From the IMG/VR virus record IMGVR_UViG_3300043427_000924, positions 1 to 20,865 of that record: a stretch of DNA of 20,865 nt. One strand, written 5' to 3'. This document shows, one piece after another, positions 3,406-18,825 of the stretch (positions are counted from its first letter, which is position 1; the number at the start of each line of letters is the position of its first letter). The position numbers and the translations under genes are program-made. This stretch comes from a virus. The notes under the pieces are model-generated. The model saw nothing but the letters and a program-made list of their open reading frames with translations. It was not told where the DNA came from and did no database searches.

Positions 3406-4110
3406 TTATTGGATTACAAAACCGCTTGTGTCTTTTTTAGCTTTGTGCCCTTTAGCTCTCAGTCCGATTATTGTGCCGGGCTCAATATCGAGCATTAAGT
3501 CGTCACGTTCGTCTCCGTCTACCACTTTAAAACCTTTGTAGGTAGTCGGCAATTCATTTGCGAATACAAAGCTAGATATTCCACCATTTGACAATATTTC
3601 CAATGCTGTTTGCTCATTGTCTTCTGACCTACTAAAGCACACCATATAACGATGTCCCGACTTTAGTACTTTGTCACCTGCTTTATTAGGGATTTTTGTG
3701 TAGTCATAAAAAACCACATTTGATGCAATTTCGTGTAAGCTAGTCACCATTTCAACTAATTTATAGTCGCTTGTCCCATTTAGTCGAATAGCTAATTCGC
3801 CTTTAGTCCTTTTCGCTTTGTTGTTTATTTCCTTTGCGATTTGCTCTACAAAAGCAAAGCGATTGCCTAACAGAAAATTTGATTTCCTTATTCTTGCCGC
3901 TTGTACATTTGGCATTATGCCTAAACCCGCCTCATATAAACAAGCAAGCAAACAGCCTTTACTCGCTTTAGGGCACAAATTTACCCCAAAATCGTTTTGA
4001 TTTGCGGGCGAAAGATACAAAATAAGCGTTTCTCTGAAGTTCTTTTTTGTCTTAGCATTTGAGTCGCCTTTGCTCAATAAATTTTTGATTTGATTTGCTG
4101 TAGTGTTCAT
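3406..4110 (-). CDS. GP88-like phage protein (Cys-cluster)
   Basis: The 234-aa protein matches the phage 'gene product 88' family as I recall it. Near residues 34-57 it has a Ser-Pro-Ala, Leu-Cys-Pro-Lys-Ala, Gly-Cys, Ala-Cys pattern with Cys at 46, 53 and 57. This is followed by a basic QAARIRKSNFLLGN segment and a helix ending FVEQIAKEI. The conserved arginine/asparagine strand IRLNGTSD and the VVFYDYTK strand suggest an alpha/beta (possibly TIM-barrel-like) fold. The three-cysteine cluster could bind a metal or Fe-S centre, but the function of the family is not established. It is the first sizeable gene of the leftward operon. Confidence 0.8.
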   Translation of the reverse strand: MNTTANQIKNLLSKGDSNAKTKKNFRETLILYLSPANQNDFGVNLCPKASKGCLLACLYEAGLGIMPNVQAARIRKSNFLLGNRFAFVEQIAKEINNKAKRTKGELAIRLNGTSDYKLVEMVTSLHEIASNVVFYDYTKIPNKAGDKVLKSGHRYMVCFSRSEDNEQTALEILSNGGISSFVFANELPTTYKGFKVVDGDERDDLMLDIEPGTIIGLRAKGHKAKKDTSGFVIQ

Positions 4111-6111: not shown

Positions 6112-6142
6112 TTTGGATATTTAAAAAGTAGTTTTATCTTTG
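6112..6142 (+). promoter_or_regulatory. Promoter of the chaperonin operon
   Basis: TTTG at 6112-6115, 19 nt, TATCTTTG at 6135-6142: an exact match to the Bacteroidota consensus. The first ATG of the operon (6147) lies only 4 nt beyond the -7 box, so the mRNA is predicted to be leaderless or nearly so. Confidence 0.75.
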
Positions 6143-6146
6143 TGGC

Positions 6147-6398
6147 ATGAAGAAATATTTAATAGTTGCACTTGCGGCATTCACCATTGAGGTGGCTTCG
6201 ACTATGTACATAGCTACTGTAGCAGACAGAAGCGTTGCGATGATCTTTTGGGCTTTCGTTGGTCCCTTTCTTGGGTTGCCATTTATCGCTTATCAGATTG
6301 AGGCAAAGAATTGGTCTGACAGGATAAGGTTGGCATTAGTCTCCGGAGTTGGTTATGCGTTAGGTGCGCTATTGGTATATCTGATTAACATTTCTTAA
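6147..6398 (+). CDS. Small integral membrane protein, first gene of the chaperonin operon
   Basis: This 83-aa protein has three predicted membrane segments: residues about 4-26, 32-52 and 61-82. They are separated by short polar turns (ADRS; EAKNWSDRIR). Gly/Pro pairs (GPFLGLP) in the second segment and a GxGxAxG-like pattern in the third resemble small transporter- or channel-like helices. No family is recognised. It lies 18 nt before groEL in the same transcript. Its start follows the promoter immediately, so translation from a leaderless message is likely. A role in membrane stress, superinfection exclusion or lysis control is conceivable but not shown. Confidence 0.75.
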   Translation: MKKYLIVALAAFTIEVASTMYIATVADRSVAMIFWAFVGPFLGLPFIAYQIEAKNWSDRIRLALVSGVGYALGALLVYLINIS

Positions 6399-6416
6399 AA
6401 TTAAATCAAATTTATT

Positions 6417-8060
6417 ATGTTTGACAGTACAGGCTATTCACCCAAGGACTTGGTCTTTGGAGAGAAGGGGCGCAACAAGTTGATTGATGGCATCACTAAG
6501 ATTGCTGATGCAGTAAAGAGTACCCTTGGCCCAGGGGGCAATACGGTGTTGATAGAGTCACCGCATCACACACATGGTATCACGGTTACAAAGGATGGGG
6601 TTACAGTTGCCAAGGCTGTTGACCTGTTTGATCCGGTAGAGAACCTTGCGGTTAGGATGATGAAGGAGGCAGCTGAGCGTACCGCTACCAGTGCAGGGGA
6701 TGGGACGACTACCTCAATAATCCTGACGGAGGCTATGGTCCTTGAGGGGACTAGGTTGCTAACGCCTGACTTGAATCGCACTGCGGTGCTAAGGCATTTG
6801 CATACTATGTGCAATGAGGTGGTCAGTCAGTTGTCGGCAAAGGCTAAGAAGGTGACGAGTAAGATGATTGCTGACGTGGCTACAATATCAGCGAATAATG
6901 ACAAGGAGATAGGGCGAATCATCGCTGAGGTGTATAAGGACATCGGGAGAGATGGCATTGTTACTGTGGAGAAGAGTCAGACCCATGAGACGTATGCTGA
7001 GACCACCAAGGGCCTAAAGATTGACAGGGGCTATCTGTCAAATATGTTCATCAATGACCAGAAGAAGGACGAGTGTGTATTTGAGGATGTGATGGTATTG
7101 GTATGCGACATTGAGATAAGTAATATCTTGCAGATTGAGAACATATTAAAGCCGATCATTACTGAGGGTAAAAAGTTACTCATCATATCGCCATGCAGTG
7201 TGAACGTGGTCAATACCCTTGCGGCCAATGTCGTAAAGGGTAACGTCAAGGTCTGCGCTATTGCTCCGCCTAACTTTGGGTATAAGCAGCACGAGCTGAT
7301 GCAGGACATCGCGATAAGTGTTGGGGCTAACTACTTCAGTGAGAAAACAGGTGACGACTTGTCGCTCATCAACTATGGCGACTTAGGCCATGCGGCAAAG
7401 GTTATTGTCTCATCTGACAAGACTATCCTACTCAAGTCAAATGCGAGAGCCAAGGCTGAGCAGGTTGACGAAAGGGTCAAGCAGCTATGGGCCGCTCATG
7501 CTATGGCAAAGCGCAAGGCTGACAAGGACTTCATCTTGGAGCGCATCGCTTCATTGACCGGTGGTATCGGTGTTATATATGTCGGAGGTAATACTGACCT
7601 GGAGCAAAAGGAGCTGTATGACCGAGTTGACGATGCAGTATGCGCTGTTAGATCTGCTTTGGAGGAGGGTATCCTTCCAGGTGCCGGCAAAGCACTCTTC
7701 GAGATTGACCATAGTAAGCTGTTGGGTGACCCTCAAAATCATGAGCTGAACGTGGCGTGGCATATCATGGACGCAGCGCTTGAGGCCCCAATCAAACAGA
7801 TACTAAAAAATGTCGGGCTTAACTTTGAGGAGGTGTATGAGTTCTTTACTCCTGAGGGATATGACAAGGTGCCTGACGGACATGGGTACAATGTCAAGAC
7901 CGGTGAGTTCGGGGACCTCATCAAGATGGGTATCGTTGACCCACTCAAGGTCACAAGGAGTGCGCTGCAAAATGCAGTAAGTGTGGCATCAACAATTCTT
8001 AGCACTAATGCCATCATCACAATGGGTAGGAGCTTTGAGATTTCTAACGCTAAACAATAA
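6417..8060 (+). CDS. groEL: Phage-encoded group I chaperonin GroEL
   Basis: At 547 aa this is full length and readily alignable by eye to bacterial GroEL. The ATP site is intact: TLGPGGNTV at residues 36-44, TKDGVTVA with D60 (equivalent of E. coli D52), GDGTTT at 94-99 with D95 (D87), and RVDDAVCAVRSALEEG with D406 (D398, the hydrolytic Asp). The apical domain (about 195-380) keeps the hydrophobic helices used for substrate and GroES binding (ISNILQIENIL; VVNTLAANVV). The C-terminus ends NAKQ and lacks the Gly-Gly-Met tail found in many bacterial GroELs. It probably folds phage virion proteins together with the GroES encoded at 9917-10174. The DNA is more GC-rich than the late genes in the lines I counted (about 48% against about 32%). 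Confidence 0.97.
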   Translation: MFDSTGYSPKDLVFGEKGRNKLIDGITKIADAVKSTLGPGGNTVLIESPHHTHGITVTKDGVTVAKAVDLFDPVENLAVRMMKEAAERTATSAGDGTTTSIILTEAMVLEGTRLLTPDLNRTAVLRHLHTMCNEVVSQLSAKAKKVTSKMIADVATISANNDKEIGRIIAEVYKDIGRDGIVTVEKSQTHETYAETTKGLKIDRGYLSNMFINDQKKDECVFEDVMVLVCDIEISNILQIENILKPIITEGKKLLIISPCSVNVVNTLAANVVKGNVKVCAIAPPNFGYKQHELMQDIAISVGANYFSEKTGDDLSLINYGDLGHAAKVIVSSDKTILLKSNARAKAEQVDERVKQLWAAHAMAKRKADKDFILERIASLTGGIGVIYVGGNTDLEQKELYDRVDDAVCAVRSALEEGILPGAGKALFEIDHSKLLGDPQNHELNVAWHIMDAALEAPIKQILKNVGLNFEEVYEFFTPEGYDKVPDGHGYNVKTGEFGDLIKMGIVDPLKVTRSALQNAVSVASTILSTNAIITMGRSFEISNAKQ

Positions 8061-8065
8061 GACCA

Positions 8066-8425
8066 ATGCTTAATACACTAGCTAAAAATATCTACGAGGG
8101 GAATAAAGCCAGAGGATTCTGGGATAATGAGCGCAATATTGGCGAGACGCTCATGCTTGTCGTTACAGAGCTTGCTGAGGCACTCGAAGCGCATCGGGCA
8201 GGGAAACTATGCACCTACGGGGACAAAATGGCTTACGCGGAGTCTGACGACACCACACAGGCATTTAAGCATCACATCAAGGACAGCTTTGAGGATGAGA
8301 TAGCTGACGCTGTTATTCGACTGCTTGATATGTGTGGTGGATTTGGTATTGACATAGACTTCCATGTGACATCAAAACTCATGTACAATGCATCAAGGCC
8401 ATACAAGCATGGTAAGAAATATTAG
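8066..8425 (+). CDS. MazG-like nucleotide pyrophosphohydrolase
   Basis: The 119-aa protein has the MazG/all-alpha NTP pyrophosphohydrolase metal motif: E35-x-x-E38 in VTELAEALEAHR and E78-x-x-D81 in FEDEIADAVIRLLD. Single-domain MazG-like enzymes hydrolyse (d)NTPs to monophosphates plus pyrophosphate. In phages they are thought to clean up nucleotide pools or alter host stress nucleotides. An insertion between the two motifs (about residues 45-75) is longer than in minimal members, but similar inserts occur in phage versions. It begins 5 nt after groEL, in the same operon. Confidence 0.85.
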   Translation: MLNTLAKNIYEGNKARGFWDNERNIGETLMLVVTELAEALEAHRAGKLCTYGDKMAYAESDDTTQAFKHHIKDSFEDEIADAVIRLLDMCGGFGIDIDFHVTSKLMYNASRPYKHGKKY

Positions 8426-8451
8426 TTCATTTTTAAAACAAATTTCACAAC

Positions 8452-9297
8452 ATGAAGCATTCTTTGCATTCCTCTTTTTACCCACACATTGACGCACATA
8501 AATTTACTACTGTAGTAAAAAAGCTCAGACAGTTTTTTGACAACAAAGGTCTCCTTGAGGTGCATACGCAAAATAGGTTGAGCATATTGGCGGCCTGCGA
8601 GAATCCGCATAGCATTGCTAAGTTTACATACAACCACAATGTCTATCCGCTACCGCAGACTGGGCAGATGTGGCTTGAGCATGAGCTGCTAACACAACCA
8701 CAAGAGAAGGGGTTTTACTGCTTGTCAACGAGCTACCGCAATGAGGAGGCGCCAATTGAGGGTCGCCACTGCATGATCTTCCCAATGTTTGAGTTTGAGT
8801 TCCATGGCACGATGACCGAGCTAGCGATAGTAGAGACTGAGCTGCTTGAGTATCTTGGTTTTAAAACACCTGCTATCAGAAACTATGAGGACGTGTGCGA
8901 TGAGTATGGGGTCAGCATCATTGAGAATGACACAGAGACAAAGCTATACCATGACGTATCTGACGCAGTGTTGTTAATGAACTTCCCAGAGCGCACCAAT
9001 CCATTTTGGAATATGGAGAGACATGACAATGGAACAGCTAAGAAAATTGACGTAATCCTCTGCGGTCAAGAGACGATTGGGTCTGCTGAGCGCAGCTGTA
9101 ATCCTGAACAGATGAAAAAGAACTTCTTTACCATCGAGGATGGCAAATACGCTGAGAAGTTATTCGAGCTTTTTAGCTACAATAGAGTAATTGATGAGCT
9201 TGAGGAGTTCCTACAAAATAAATTTATCCCACGAGTAGGGGCCGGTATTGGTATTACCAGACTCATCAGAGCCATGGAGATAAATAAATTGATTTGA
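8452..9297 (+). CDS. Stand-alone class II aminoacyl-tRNA-synthetase-like ligase core
   Basis: At 281 aa this is the catalytic core of subclass IIb synthetases (Asp/Asn/Lys type) without an anticodon-binding domain. Motif 1 region: FFDNKGLLEVHTQ (about 28-40). PQTGQMWLEHELL (68-80) matches the SPQLYKQ-type segment. Motif 2: STSYRNEEAPIEGRH with R96, E98, R105 and H106, followed by MFEFEF. The metal-site region GQETIGSAERS is at 205-215. Motif 3: GAGIGITR with R270. All ATP-binding residues seem present, so it should form aminoacyl adenylates. Stand-alone relatives include asparagine synthetase (AsnA and the archaeal AsnRS-like type) and EpmA, which modifies EF-P. Which of these it resembles, and its acceptor, cannot be told by eye. 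Confidence 0.85.
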   Translation: MKHSLHSSFYPHIDAHKFTTVVKKLRQFFDNKGLLEVHTQNRLSILAACENPHSIAKFTYNHNVYPLPQTGQMWLEHELLTQPQEKGFYCLSTSYRNEEAPIEGRHCMIFPMFEFEFHGTMTELAIVETELLEYLGFKTPAIRNYEDVCDEYGVSIIENDTETKLYHDVSDAVLLMNFPERTNPFWNMERHDNGTAKKIDVILCGQETIGSAERSCNPEQMKKNFFTIEDGKYAEKLFELFSYNRVIDELEEFLQNKFIPRVGAGIGITRLIRAMEINKLI

Positions 9298-9317
9298 TTT
9301 TGGTTTTGGAAATGTTT

Positions 9318-9344
9318 GGGGTTGGGGAAACTCAGCCCCTTTTT
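9318..9344 (+). terminator. Probable Rho-independent terminator
   Basis: GGGGTTG (9318-9324) can pair with CAGCCCC (9333-9339), with one wobble and an 8-nt loop, followed by five T. It lies between the ligase gene and the SleB-like gene. No promoter is visible between it and the next ATG, so termination may be partial. Confidence 0.6.
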
Positions 9345-9366
9345 GTCTAATTAAATTTAATCAAAT

Positions 9367-9906
9367 ATGAGATATGCAATATTTTTATTCCTGTTTACTG
9401 CGGCATTTCCCCTTTTCAATCCGATTGAGAAAAAGAAGGAGATACAGTATCGGGAGGAGCCGGTACAAGAGATTATTGAGGAGAAGAAGACGCTAGACTA
9501 CTCTATCAATAAAAAACCAAAGGCTGAGTGGAACGAGGTAGATTGGATGGCGAAGATGCTAATGTCAGAGACACCTGACTCAACTGACGTAGAGGGGCTT
9601 CGATACATGGCCATCTCCGCAGTCGTCAGAGCAGAGATGATGAAGTCGAATGTCATCAAAGCAATAACATATCCAAGAGCCTATAGCGGTGTGAATCTAG
9701 AGAGCTATATCTGGTGGAGAGCTGAGCCAACAAGTATACACAAAGCAATTGCGTGGGACTTAGTAGAGAATGGTCTCAGAGAAAGCGATCCAAAAATCTA
9801 TGCATTCTGCAATATGAGCATCATCTCCGAGAAGAATAGGAGATGGTTTAGAACACTAAAGTTCTATAAAAAAATCGGAGAGGTAACATTTTTTCTTTTA
9901 CCATAA
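9367..9906 (+). CDS. SleB-like cell wall hydrolase, secreted or anchored
   Basis: This 179-aa protein starts with a hydrophobic segment (RYAIFLFLFTAAFPLF, residues 2-17) that acts as signal or anchor. A charged Glu/Lys linker (about 20-55) follows. The C-terminal domain resembles the SleB/Hydrolase_2 lysozyme-like fold: DWMAKMLMSET with E68 in the position of the catalytic Glu, then LRYMAISAVVRAEM, VIKAITYPRAYSGVN and a downstream KAIAWDLVENGL. The usual VLNRV segment is changed to VVRAEM, so it is a divergent member. It probably cleaves peptidoglycan in the periplasm, for lysis or entry. It follows the terminator at 9318-9344 and precedes groES by 10 nt. Confidence 0.65.
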   Translation: MRYAIFLFLFTAAFPLFNPIEKKKEIQYREEPVQEIIEEKKTLDYSINKKPKAEWNEVDWMAKMLMSETPDSTDVEGLRYMAISAVVRAEMMKSNVIKAITYPRAYSGVNLESYIWWRAEPTSIHKAIAWDLVENGLRESDPKIYAFCNMSIISEKNRRWFRTLKFYKKIGEVTFFLLP

Positions 9907-9916
9907 ATCTAATCTA

Positions 9917-10174
9917 ATGCAACCAATAGGAAAGTACATAGTCGTTTCGTCAATTGACGAGGAAATTAAAACAGATTCCGGCATCATCCTTTCAGGAGAC
10001 GATGCCAGTCAATTCAGATATAAAAAGGGTAAGGTAGTAAAACCTGGCACTGACGTATCTGTGATAAAAGAAGGGGACGTTGTCTACTACGACAAGGGAT
10101 TCTCATTCACGATGATCATCAATAACGAGCAGCATACAATCATTCGGGAGACCGACGTCGTTGTTGTTTGTTAA
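9917..10174 (+). CDS. groES: GroES-like co-chaperonin
   Basis: At 85 aa it is slightly shorter than bacterial GroES (about 95). It begins with the strand PIGKYIVV. EEIKTDSGIILSGDD (residues 15-29) matches the mobile loop, with the hydrophobic tripeptide IIL at 23-25 that docks on GroEL. Later motifs fit the family: KKGKVVKPG (about 37-45), IKEGDVVYYDKG (50-61) and TIIRETDVVVV (74-84). It should form the heptameric lid for the GroEL encoded at 6417. It is separated from groEL by three genes rather than lying next to it. Its 3' end overlaps the convergent regulator gene by 35 bp. Confidence 0.9.
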   Translation: MQPIGKYIVVSSIDEEIKTDSGIILSGDDASQFRYKKGKVVKPGTDVSVIKEGDVVYYDKGFSFTMIINNEQHTIIRETDVVVVC

Positions 10175-10586
10175 AAGCATTCATTTCAACAATCATATCT
10201 TTGTAAACCTTCTCGCTATACTTAGCTTTCCTTTTTAGGAAGATAGGGTTATTACATTTTTGCACAGGGATGTCTTCTCCATTTAGCTTTCTGTAAAGGT
10301 CAGCAATGAGAAGCTTCCCTTTGTCGCTCATTTGGTATATAACTGCTCTTCCTCGACCTTTCTTTCTGAAGATTTCAAACCATCCATCATCAAGTAATTT
10401 TTGAAATCTCTCCCTATTCCAAGTCAATATTCGATTAAATTCATCAAATCTTTCTCTGGTAAAGTACCCTTCAGAGTACATGAAGATTAAAACATCTAAC
10501 TCTGCCTGCGATATTTTGTGTTTTGCTTTGAAGTACTGACGTATTACCTTGTAATATTTCAGATAATCTCTGGGTGGTGTAGCCAT
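10140..10586 (-). CDS. Winged-helix transcriptional regulator (MarR/PadR-like)
   Basis: The 148-aa protein is mainly helical with a winged-helix pattern: ISQAELDVLIFMYSEGYFTR (about 25-44), a recognition-helix region with LTWNRERFQKLLDDGWFEIF, and a basic wing RKKGRGRAVIYQMSDKGK. This is the layout of MarR/PadR-type dimeric regulators. It is the only leftward gene among the rightward genes and is transcribed divergently from the late operon. The two promoters share an inverted repeat, which is the obvious candidate operator. It probably controls late gene timing and its own synthesis (inference). Its 3' end overlaps groES convergently. Confidence 0.8.
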   Translation of the reverse strand: MATPPRDYLKYYKVIRQYFKAKHKISQAELDVLIFMYSEGYFTRERFDEFNRILTWNRERFQKLLDDGWFEIFRKKGRGRAVIYQMSDKGKLLIADLYRKLNGEDIPVQKCNNPIFLKRKAKYSEKVYKDMIVEMNAFNKQQRRRSPE

Positions 10587-11340: not shown

Positions 11341-11508
11341 ATGGCTAAGTCAAAGAAACAAGAGGTCGTAGAGGATGAGGTGATCGAGCAACCTGTAGTA
11401 TCTGAAGAGGTACAAGAGGAAAAGGTAGAGGAACCCAAGCAAGAAGAGGTGCATCCTCACAAAGTAGGACTACAATCAAGAGACTATAGAAGCAAATATG
11501 GCAAATAA
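11341..11508 (+). CDS. Short acidic Glu/Val-rich protein
   Basis: A 55-aa frame runs from ATG 11341 to TAA 11508, overlapping the next gene's start at 11498. The N-terminal 40 residues are almost all Glu, Val, Gln and Lys (VVEDEVIEQPVVSEEVQEEK). The C-terminus ends LQSRDYRSKYGK. An acidic partner among basic small proteins could neutralise or chaperone them before packaging (inference). Confidence 0.6.
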   Translation: MAKSKKQEVVEDEVIEQPVVSEEVQEEKVEEPKQEEVHPHKVGLQSRDYRSKYGK

Positions 11509-11788
11509 AGCGACAATGAAATGCAATAGCCCTAAATCATCAGACCGACCAGGTAAAAAGATGATGGTTAAGGCTTGCTCCGGTGGGCAAGAGAAGCTTT
11601 TGCACTTCGGTGCCAAGGGTTATGGTAACAACTACTCCGAGGCAGCTAGAAAAAGCTTTAAAGCAAGGCATAAATGCGATACAGCAGATGATAAGCTAAC
11701 GCCAAGGTATTGGGCTTGTAAAAAACTATGGGCAGGCCCTGGTGGTAGCACAATAAGTAACCCTAAAGGTAGACAAGGTAAGTACTAA
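11498..11788 (+). CDS. Conserved small phage protein (SFKARHKCD type)
   Basis: The 96-aa protein has the pattern I recall from conserved small phage proteins: MKCNSPKSSDRPGKK, KACSGGQEKLLHFGAKGYG, then ARKSFKARHKCD and a C-terminal LTPRYWACKKLWAGP. Cysteines at about 9, 28, 60 and 73 could bind a metal or form disulfides. The function is unknown; such proteins occur in many aquatic phages in structural regions. It overlaps the stop of the 55-aa gene and the start of the next gene, so translation is coupled. Confidence 0.75.
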   Translation: MANKATMKCNSPKSSDRPGKKMMVKACSGGQEKLLHFGAKGYGNNYSEAARKSFKARHKCDTADDKLTPRYWACKKLWAGPGGSTISNPKGRQGKY

Positions 11789-12123
11789 TGAAGGACAGTT
11801 GCTATAAAAAAGTAAAAGCACAGTACGATGTGTTCCCATCGGCAAGAGCGTCACAGGCTATAGCCAAGTGTCGCAAGCAGTCAGGTAATGTCGTTAAGTC
11901 CGAGAAGGGTACAAGCATAAAGAGATGGGAGAAAGAGAACTGGGTTGACACAAAAACGAATAAGCCTTGTGGGGCAGGAGGTAAAAATGAGTATTGCAGG
12001 CCAACAAAGAGAGTATCTGCACAGACTCCAAAGACGAAGAGCGAGATTAGCCCTGCAAAACTAGAGAGTAAGAAAAGAGAGAAGTCAATTGTGGGTATGG
12101 GTAACAGAGTAAAAAAAGTATAG
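11788..12123 (+). CDS. DUF5872-like small phage protein
   Basis: This 111-aa basic protein has two motifs I recall from DUF5872-like phage proteins: an N-terminal DSCYKKVKAQYDVFPSARAS followed by KCRK, and a central KRWEKENWVDTKTNKPCGAG with NEYCRPTKRVS. The Cys/Lys/Arg pattern suggests a small metal-binding or nucleic-acid-binding module. Its ATG overlaps the TAA of the upstream gene (TAATG). The two proteins are likely co-produced and may work together in the virion. Function is not established. Confidence 0.75.
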   Translation: MKDSCYKKVKAQYDVFPSARASQAIAKCRKQSGNVVKSEKGTSIKRWEKENWVDTKTNKPCGAGGKNEYCRPTKRVSAQTPKTKSEISPAKLESKKREKSIVGMGNRVKKV

Positions 12124-13172: not shown

Positions 13173-13790
13173 ATGAATACTACATATATAAAAGCAACAG
13201 CAGCAGGTGGCGGTACTACACTTAGCACGGCACAGCTAATGAAAACAGGGCAAACAACGTCTTACAGAACGGGCGATGATGGCGATTTAGAATCAGGTCG
13301 AAATGTTGATTTTTTTACACTTGCTGAAAATAATCCTTTTGGGAATACAAATAGATTTACTGATGAATTAGGCGGTCAGACTTATACAAATAATATTGTA
13401 ATTGATTGGTCAACTTATAATGGTAGTACGGTTTTGGGGTGGAGAAGGACGGCACTTACTGCGAGTATAGTTGTTTGGACAGCAGCAATAGATGGAGCAT
13501 TAGCAGTAAGCATAGGAACATTTACAACAGGTTGGAGATTGCCAAACATTAACGAACTATATAGTATAAAACAAATAAAAAATACTATTAATGTTTTAAA
13601 CTATGCCCCTTTTAATTTAATACCTGCAATAGTAGGTGCTTTATGGTCATCTACAAAAGAGGCAGGAAGCACGACAAATTCTTTAAGGTTAATCACAACG
13701 GTTGGAACAATAGACTCACAAGGGTCCGCAACAAGTGCAAATTACATTCCCTGCCGCACTTTTACAGTAACAGGAACAACACTTTCATAA
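13173..13790 (+). CDS. DUF1566/Lcl-like adhesin with C-type-lectin-like domain
   Basis: The 205-aa protein carries the DUF1566 hallmark: TGWRLPNINELYSI at residues 119-132 and ALWSSTKEAGSTTNSLRLIT at 156-175, ending YIPCRTF. DUF1566 domains, and the related Fib_succ_major domains of Bacteroidota, adopt C-type-lectin-like folds and occur in surface adhesins. The N-terminal part has a short linker (TLSTAQLMKTGQTTSYRTGD) also typical of this class. In a phage this is a receptor-binding candidate. It lies between two beta-rich virion genes with gaps of a few bases. Confidence 0.7.
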   Translation: MNTTYIKATAAGGGTTLSTAQLMKTGQTTSYRTGDDGDLESGRNVDFFTLAENNPFGNTNRFTDELGGQTYTNNIVIDWSTYNGSTVLGWRRTALTASIVVWTAAIDGALAVSIGTFTTGWRLPNINELYSIKQIKNTINVLNYAPFNLIPAIVGALWSSTKEAGSTTNSLRLITTVGTIDSQGSATSANYIPCRTFTVTGTTLS

Positions 13791-18032: not shown

Positions 18033-18253
18033 TGGATGTAAGGAAGATATCGATAGGTGCTGATTATAAGAACGCAATGCATTATGTTGTCGGACAGAAA
18101 GTCTTAGGCGACACCAATGAGATTCATCTTATAAGAAGAGACCAATCGGGAGCTATCCGAATCTACATAGTAAATAAGAAGCAGGAAGTAGTCCTGTGGA
18201 AAGAGTTTAATGATACTATTCCAATTTCAATCGAATTTAATATAGATTTTTAA
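18032..18253 (+). CDS. Small beta-rich protein
   Basis: The 73-aa protein is strand-rich: IHLIRRDQSGAIRIYIVNKK and EVVLWKEFNDTIPISIEFN. There is no membrane segment. Its ATG overlaps the previous stop as TAATG and its stop overlaps the next ATG, so it is translationally coupled to the double GroES-fold gene. No family recognised. Confidence 0.65.
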   Translation: MDVRKISIGADYKNAMHYVVGQKVLGDTNEIHLIRRDQSGAIRIYIVNKKQEVVLWKEFNDTIPISIEFNIDF

Positions 18254-18825
18254 TGAAATCACCGACTCAGTTTATAGTAAAGCCTGTAAATGGGAGTCGA
18301 TATAACAACACAAAAAGCATAGCTGGTGTTGAGTTCATTGTAAATACCTCTGAGGAGGAGTCAAAGTTCTCAAATCGTTATGCTGAGGTTATAGAGACAC
18401 CTATAGATTACAGCGGTCCAATAAGACCAGGAGATACCTTAATCGTCCACCATAATGTCTTTAAGTTTTACAATGACATTAAGGGTAGACGCAAAAGCGG
18501 TAAGAGCTTTTTTAAGGAGGACCTGTTCTTTATTGATGAAGAGCAGTTTTTTTTATATAAGAGTGATGGAAAGTGGCAAGCATATGATAGGTATTGTTTC
18601 GTAAAACCTATTCCTGCTGAAGAGAGTTATATAAAGAAACCGTTCACACTTGAGCCTTTGATGGGTACGATGAAGTACCCTAATGAATATTTAAAAAGTA
18701 AAGGTGTCAACGAAGGAGATACCGTGTGCTTTGCCCCTAACGGTGAGTACGAATTTGAAATTGATGGTGAAAAGCTATATAGGATGTATGACCATTTTGT
18801 GACAATGAAACTTAATCCGGTATGA
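18253..18825 (+). CDS. GroES-fold protein, probably two tandem barrels
   Basis: The 190-aa protein reads like two GroES-type beta-barrels. Domain 1: FIVKPV near residues 7-12, SIAGVEFIV (22-30), then IRPGDTLIVHHNVFKF (57-72). Domain 2: YCFVKPI near 114-120, GVNEGDTVCFAPNGEYEFEI (151-170) with LYRMYDHFVTM (175-185). The GD-T-hydrophobic motif followed by a hydrophobic strand recurs in both halves, as in GroES. The basic insertion GRRKSGKS (78-85) is unlike GroES. It lies directly upstream of the terminase genes, so a structural or assembly role is as likely as co-chaperonin activity. Confidence 0.55.
   Translation: MKSPTQFIVKPVNGSRYNNTKSIAGVEFIVNTSEEESKFSNRYAEVIETPIDYSGPIRPGDTLIVHHNVFKFYNDIKGRRKSGKSFFKEDLFFIDEEQFFLYKSDGKWQAYDRYCFVKPIPAEESYIKKPFTLEPLMGTMKYPNEYLKSKGVNEGDTVCFAPNGEYEFEIDGEKLYRMYDHFVTMKLNPV

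What the first reader, a model, noticed from the sequence alone, without database searches (positions are those of the whole stretch)
6112..10174. Phage encoding both GroEL and GroES in a dedicated takeover block
Seen: a 547-aa GroEL with all three catalytic Asp equivalents and an 85-aa GroES with an intact mobile loop, in one rightward block with its own promoter. Known: most phages that need chaperonin borrow host GroEL or supply only a GroES substitute (T4 gp31); phage GroELs are known but uncommon, and a matched pair rarer still. Inferred: the capsid or another virion protein needs a chamber different from the host's. The GroEL lacks the Gly-Gly-Met tail.
Basis: partly seen in the sequence, partly recalled or inferred. 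Interest (0 to 1): 0.75.

Follow-up and report, generated by a model that had tools for sequence, protein, structure and literature searches.

The report
Phage protein-folding machine with two lids
A virus of water bacteria carries its own protein-folding barrel and matching lid, plus a second, double-length lid-like protein near its DNA-packaging gene; barrel and lid are standard equipment in its virus group, but the double lid may be a new kind of chaperonin cap.

Summary
In detail: 6417-8060 encodes a group I chaperonin (GroEL) and 9917-10174 a GroES, on a fragment of a ~60 kb tailed phage whose relatives infect Flavobacteriia. The pair is not rare in this lineage: all 80 related viral loci carry both, in order, on one strand, and GroEL in a related phage group was published in 2017. 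The GroEL is no recent host import (about 37% identity to bacterial GroELs; separate branch). The genes between GroEL and GroES are lineage-specific insertions, so a dedicated 'takeover block' is not supported. New here: (i) a second co-chaperonin-like gene, 18253-18825, predicted as two tandem GroES-fold domains, beside the terminase; 25 of 26 long records hold all three genes; (ii) ring-ring contact positions that bacteria conserve are freed from constraint in the phage GroELs, suggesting a single or weakly paired ring; (iii) the lid-binding groove is fixed in a non-bacterial form (L234E, V263A, V264A in 23 of 23). Best reading: a private chaperonin system folding virion proteins. Boldest reading: a mixed seven-domain lid, as reported for chloroplasts. 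Ring number, lid stoichiometry and client are untested.

The parts
6417..8060 (+). GroEL-like group I chaperonin, 547 aa
   Evidence: Pfam Cpn60 9.7e-62; PHROG GroEL 7e-134; catalytic Asp triad kept; separate branch in the tree
9917..10174 (+). GroES1: single-domain co-chaperonin, 85 aa, mobile loop present, roof segment short
   Evidence: Pfam Cpn10 2.9e-11; model Z 10.8 to GroES; 9 residues in the roof segment against 18 in E. coli
18253..18825 (+). GroES2: co-chaperonin-like protein, 190 aa, predicted as two tandem GroES-fold domains (about 1-105 and 106-190)
   Evidence: PHROG co-chaperonin GroES 4.6e-25; best PDB match to the model is tandem Cpn20, chain 7ekq_R, Z 10.2 over 161 residues
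19078..20865 (+). Terminase large subunit (cut by the end of the window), near neighbour of GroES2
   Evidence: PHROG terminase 8e-143; terL lies 225-903 bases downstream of GroES2 in 75 of 76 loci with room
10140..10586 (-). Convergent ORF of 148 aa overlapping the 3' end of GroES1, found downstream of GroES1 in all 80 viral loci
   Evidence: PHROG 17028, unknown function
6112..6142 (+). Possible Bacteroidota-type promoter (weak)
   Evidence: pattern match; 14 of 100 shuffles have as many matches
8066..9906 (+). Lineage-specific genes inserted between GroEL and GroES1: MazG-like (8066-8425), class II synthetase core (8452-9297), 179-aa ORF (9367-9906)
   Evidence: present in 10, 13 and 12 of 80 loci respectively; family hits

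Best explanation
The phage carries a private group I chaperonin system. GroEL forms an ATP-driven seven-subunit ring whose lid-binding groove has changed, so it probably works with phage lids rather than host GroES. GroES1, made from the gene downstream, is the ordinary lid; its roof segment is short, as in T4 gp31, which suggests a more open dome. The tandem GroES2, encoded beside the terminase, is most likely a further lid subunit. The relaxed ring-ring surface suggests a single-ring or weakly paired machine. Clients are most likely virion proteins such as the major capsid protein. Shown here: the three genes, their conservation, the residue changes and the predicted folds. Inferred: lid partnership, ring number, clients and timing.
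For: All three ATPase aspartates are kept in the 11 sequences examined for them. The eight groove positions (recalled) are nearly as invariant within the phage clade (0.90) as in bacteria (0.92), but with other residues: L234E, V263A and V264A in 23 of 23. Eleven ring-ring positions: mean column identity 0.149 in 23 phage GroELs against 0.597 in 30 bacterial ones, while the rest of the equatorial domain is 0.71 against 0.66; 0 of 20,000 random or conservation-matched sets are as low. Both inter-ring salt bridges possible in 2 of 23 phage and 29 of 30 bacterial sequences. GroEL and GroES1 together in 80 of 80 loci; all three genes in 25 of 26 long records. Roof segment 9 residues in 23 of 23 phage GroES1, 12-18 in 59 Bacteroidota GroES, 18 in E. 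coli, 11 in T4 gp31. A relative's GroEL (phage phi38:1) was identified, with methylated residues, by mass spectrometry during infection (PMC13288928, passages read).
Against: No function or assembly was tested. The window's own GroEL may keep one of the two inter-ring salt bridges (R105 with E435). Bacteroidota GroES already have short roof segments (13 residues in 39 of 59), so the roof change is smaller than it looks against E. coli. Cultured relatives (phi19:3 and its kin) keep GroES1- and GroES2-like genes; phi19:3 has no GroEL, so there the lids do not depend on a phage GroEL. The ring-ring positions come mostly from recall; K105-D435, R452, E461, S463 and V464 were confirmed in PMC5575113.
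Confidence: 0.68

Rival explanations
1. GroES1 alone is the lid of the phage GroEL; GroES2 is a head or packaging factor that kept the GroES fold and does not act on a chaperonin.
For: GroES2 stays beside terL (75 of 76 loci; also in elemo, Panino and phi19:3), not beside GroEL. Its first domain is not recognised as GroES by sequence (hhalign probability 0.5), and its second domain has a short loop in this clade.
Against: Its second domain is a Cpn10 domain by Pfam in two homologues, over the cut-off. Residues 1-188 of the model align with tandem Cpn20. It is not labelled a virion protein in the records read.
Confidence: 0.35
2. The lids mainly redirect the host GroEL, as T4 gp31 does; the phage GroEL has a minor or separate holding role.
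For: phi19:3 has both lid genes and no GroEL by annotation or tblastn; its close relatives phi13:2, phi18:3 and phi46:3 hold both lid genes.
Against: Throughout the window's clade the GroEL is kept, with an intact ATPase site and a strongly conserved groove.
Confidence: 0.15
3. The genes are a recent host import or a piece of bacterial chromosome.
For: Related sequences appear on contigs binned into bacterial genomes (L085-L095).
Against: Those contigs also show the phage order GroEL, GroES1, and in 10 of 11 a nearby convergent ORF, and are probably misbinned phage. Identity to the bacterial GroELs compared is 34.7-40.6%; the tree places the clade outside all 30 bacterial rows; the contig has a terminase.
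Confidence: 0.02

Closest known systems
Flavobacterial podoviruses: Elemovirus, Callevirus phi38:1 (Pervagoviridae), Maribacter phage Panino
   Same: All three genes: a GroEL, a small GroES near it, and a larger GroES-type gene just before terL (in phi38:1 before a large unannotated ORF in that position)
   Different: Window GroEL is only 34-36% identical to theirs; order and strand of the GroEL-GroES pair differ between groups
T4 gp31 co-chaperonin
   Same: Phage lid with a GroES fold and short roof segment
   Different: gp31 serves the host GroEL; here a phage GroEL is present and the lid is shorter (85 aa against 111)
Chloroplast Cpn20 with Cpn10 (hetero-oligomeric lids of seven GroES domains; PMC5780408, passages read)
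   Same: A tandem two-domain lid coexisting with a single-domain lid; best structural match of GroES2
   Different: No detectable sequence kinship; assembly untested; in this phage clade the second domain has a short loop
Jumbo-phage chaperonins EL, OBP and AR9 (PMC7185714, PMC5934643, PMC9598537; passages read)
   Same: Phage-encoded GroEL-like rings; OBP and AR9 are single rings
   Different: Those are reported to act without a co-chaperonin; AR9 is 23% identical to the window protein, and here two lid-type genes are kept

Membership tests
Group I chaperonin (Cpn60/GroEL) | Full-length Cpn60 domain over the curated cut-off | tested here: met
   Pfam 209.7 bits against 34.3; NCBIfam GroEL subfamily models NF009487 and NF000592 over cut-off, but the GroEL equivalog TIGR02348 under it (458 against 582)
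Group I chaperonin (Cpn60/GroEL) | ATPase aspartates 52, 87, 398 | tested here: met
Group I chaperonin (Cpn60/GroEL) | Works with a detachable GroES lid | not testable with these tools
   GroES1 gene present in 80 of 80 loci; binding untested
E. coli-type double-ring GroEL | Conserved ring-ring contacts | tested here: not met
   both salt bridges possible in 2 of 23 phage GroELs against 29 of 30 bacterial; the window may keep one of the two
E. coli-type double-ring GroEL | Hydrophobic lid and substrate groove (L234, L259, V263, V264) | tested here: not met
   E, V, A, A in the window; 234E, 263A and 264A in 23 of 23
GroES/Cpn10 (9917-10174) | Cpn10 domain over cut-off, GroES fold, mobile loop | tested here: met
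   43.7 bits against 21.1; Z 10.8, rmsd 2.4, 82 aligned; loop conserved in the 23 aligned sequences
Tandem co-chaperonin, Cpn20 type (18253-18825) | Second domain is Cpn10 | tested here: met
   Pfam over cut-off in homologues phi38:1 gp89 and phi19:3 gp101, though not in the window protein itself; hhalign to GroES1 E 2.2e-5, probability 76.5; 1aon_O Z 8.1
Tandem co-chaperonin, Cpn20 type (18253-18825) | First domain is Cpn10 | tested here: inconclusive
   whole-model alignment to 7ekq_R, Z 10.2, rmsd 4.4, but no support from profile-profile comparison
Tandem co-chaperonin, Cpn20 type (18253-18825) | Forms seven-domain lids with a single-domain partner | not testable with these tools
   both genes in 25 of 26 long records; assembly untested
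T4 gp31-type lid | Serves the host GroEL | not testable with these tools
   needs a binding or complementation assay

The most novel reading that the evidence does not exclude
The phage builds a mixed lid of three tandem GroES2 and one GroES1 (seven GroES domains) on a natural single-ring GroEL. In this clade the second GroES2 domain has a short loop without an evident binding motif, so such a lid would carry about four working loops and three silent ones. An engineered single-ring E. coli GroEL is rescued in vivo by linked GroES lids with two or three silenced loops (PMC5575113, abstract and passages), so the phage may have evolved the same weakened-lid solution for releasing the lid without a second ring.
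Probability: 0.2. Interest if true: 0.8.

Novelty: new variant of a known kind. Interest (0 to 1): 0.5.

Why it matters
The phage-encoded chaperonins described in the papers read act without lids, and T4-type phages bring only a lid. A widespread phage group with a full barrel plus two lid types would let one ask how a lid can be released without a second ring, and whether mixed lids known from chloroplasts arose separately in viruses. Cultured relatives (phi38:1, elemo, Panino) make this testable.

Tried and rejected
Recent host import: rejected by the tree and by identities. Takeover block as a conserved unit: rejected, since the three inserted genes occur in 10-13 of 80 loci. Roof loss as a striking phage-only trait: toned down, because Bacteroidota GroES are already short (a first count by regular expression left 26 of 59 unmatched and was replaced). 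Panino first seemed to lack GroES1 (its CDS0112 has no Cpn10 hit); a profile then found it in the frame of CDS0109 (E 1.5e-5). A common origin of the window-clade GroEL and those of elemo, phi38:1 and Panino is left open: long branches without support. First GroES2 domain by profile comparison: no support. PDB sequence search with GroES2: only weak GroES hits, best E 0.58. PDB sequence search with the synthetase-like protein: nothing at E 0.001. Literature on a tandem phage co-chaperonin: the listings showed no such paper; only openly licensed full texts are held, and Marine et al. 2017 (ISME J), a survey of viral chaperonins, is not held and is known to me only through citations and recall.

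Limits of the counts: the 80 loci are the best 80 of 384 matching stretches, chosen by GroEL similarity; the GroES2 loci are the best 80 of 420. Of the 26 long records, 22 were chosen for GroEL and 4 for GroES2; the one without GroES2 (53,675 bases) may be incomplete. The ring-ring test used 23 phage and 30 bacterial sequences of the 124 gathered. The tree used 70 rows, quick mode, SH-aLRT only. The GroES2 structure rests on the best of five models (mean pLDDT 77.1, 69.8, 49.6, 49.1, 46.8).
Full report
What is there. The window is a 20,865-base IMG/VR virus record. It encodes a 547-aa GroEL at 6417-8060 and an 85-aa GroES at 9917-10174. The right end is a terminase large subunit whose relatives in 87 phage records are phages of Flavobacterium (68), Cellulophaga (15), Tenacibaculum (2) and Maribacter (1), plus the spring-water phage MW202828, so the host is probably one of the Flavobacteriia or another member of the Bacteroidota.

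The pair is normal for this lineage. A viral-contig scan found 384 related stretches; in all 80 kept loci a GroES follows GroEL on the same strand (gap median 378.5 bases, range 7-2117) and a convergent ORF like 10140-10586 follows GroES. In the window and its nearest kin one to three genes (MazG-like, class II synthetase core, a 179-aa ORF) sit between the two; most other loci lack them, so they look like insertions. MW202828 has the two genes almost touching. Nishimura and colleagues already reported GroEL in 36 of 78 environmental genomes of the phi38:1-like group (PMC5332604, passages), Bartlau and colleagues list a cpn10 among the core proteins of Pervagoviridae (PMC8776804, passages), and a 2020 paper states that some phages have both homologues (PMC7185714, passages). 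Author names are recalled.

Origin. The window GroEL is 34.7-40.6% identical to the bacterial GroELs gathered, including 28 from one family (that of the genome holding L094, titled Flavobacteriaceae). In a 70-row tree the 17 phage-clade rows and 10 rows from contigs binned into bacterial genomes form one group (SH-aLRT 99), apart from all 30 bacterial rows, whereas the GroELs of Vibrio phages pv27 and 2.275 fall beside E. coli and that of Bacteroides phage SJC03 beside Bacteroidales. The binned contigs carry GroES1 after GroEL and are probably misbinned phage.

A second lid gene. ORF 18253-18825 (190 aa) matches the PHROG co-chaperonin GroES family (4.6e-25). Its model (pLDDT 77; loops and an insertion at 74-87 uncertain) aligns best with chain 7ekq_R (Z 10.2, rmsd 4.4, 161 residues, both halves), which is the tandem chloroplast co-chaperonin Cpn20 (chain name), and its second half aligns with GroES (Z 8-9). 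Sequence supports the second domain (Pfam Cpn10 in two homologues; hhalign E 2.2e-5 to GroES1) but not the first. The gene lies 225-903 bases before terL in 75 of 76 loci with room. The corresponding gene directly precedes terL in elemo and Panino, precedes a large unannotated ORF in that position in phi38:1, and has one small gene between in phi19:3. Of 26 long records, 26 hold GroEL, 26 GroES1 and 25 GroES2. phi19:3 keeps both lid genes without a GroEL. RefSeq already labels several of these genes co-chaperonin GroES; I found no paper on a tandem phage lid in the searches listed under Tried and rejected.

The GroEL itself. The ATPase aspartates are kept. Eight groove positions that bind lid and substrate in E. 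coli (recalled) are almost invariant in the phage clade but differ from bacteria: L234E, V263A and V264A in 23 of 23, L259V or I, Y203L or M. Eleven ring-ring positions have mean column identity 0.149 in the phage clade against 0.597 in bacteria, although the phage set is the more similar one overall (0.73 against 0.67 mean pairwise identity) and the rest of the equatorial domain does not fall; none of 20,000 random or conservation-matched sets is as low, for all 11 or for the 8 that bacteria conserve. Of the two inter-ring salt bridges whose absence is linked to the single ring of mitochondrial Hsp60 (PMC5575113, passages), both are possible in 2 of 23 phage and 29 of 30 bacterial sequences; the window may keep one. 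I read this as a single or weakly paired ring (about 0.5 likely), not as proof.

Lid shape. The segment that forms the GroES roof is 9 residues in 23 of 23 phage GroES1, 11 in T4 gp31, 18 in E. coli, and 12-18 in 59 Bacteroidota GroES (39 of them 13). T4 gp31 lacks roof loops and leaves a wider opening (PMC6318259, passages).

Mechanism proposed. Inferred: GroEL and its phage lids fold virion proteins that host GroEL/GroES handles poorly, the major capsid protein being the usual suspect; the altered groove makes the pair private; a weaker lid grip would allow release from a single ring, as shown for an engineered single-ring GroEL (PMC5575113; there, two silenced modules worked in vitro, and two or three in vivo, although three I25A modules abolished detectable binding). 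If GroES2 contributes two domains and GroES1 one, three plus one gives seven; chloroplast co-chaperonins of one and two domains are reported to form seven-domain hetero-oligomers (PMC5780408, passages). Against this: in phi38:1 and Panino the second domain seems to have a loop motif (by eye), lid proteins were not shown to meet, and GroES2 tracks the terminase, not GroEL.

Verdict. The reported observation is correct but largely known for this kind of phage; the tandem second lid and the freed ring-ring surface are the parts worth following.

Noticed in passing
window 8452-9297 +: Class II aminoacyl-tRNA synthetase catalytic core (D/K/N type) of 281 aa, with weak hits to EpmA, AsnRS and asparagine synthetase A, all far under cut-off; PHROG 29758 of unknown function; in 13 of 80 viral loci. 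Substrate unknown.
   Followed up: partly
window 10140-10586 -: Convergent 148-aa ORF overlapping the 3' end of GroES1, downstream of GroES1 in 80 of 80 viral loci (36-100% identity), function unknown; its relative in MW202828 is annotated 'repressor protein'.
   Followed up: partly
window 9318-9339 +: Terminator-like hairpin (9 pairs, 6 G-C, then T5) inside the supposed transcription block, upstream of the 9367 ORF and GroES1.
   Followed up: no
L085-L095 (genome contigs): Contigs binned into assorted bacterial genomes (Aliivibrio, Chthoniobacterales and others) carry this phage GroEL-GroES1 pair; probably misbinned phage, a trap for GroEL-based taxonomy.
   Followed up: partly
window 3406-4110 -: GP88-family protein (Pfam PF17338, 3.5e-31), function unknown.
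   Followed up: no
window 13173-13790 +: Lcl C-terminal domain protein (Pfam 1.4e-9) among the genes before the terminase, possibly a receptor-binding or fibre protein.
   Followed up: no
window 11788-12123 +: DUF5872 protein (Pfam 5.8e-12), lysine-rich, next to another small basic ORF (11498-11788).
   Followed up: no
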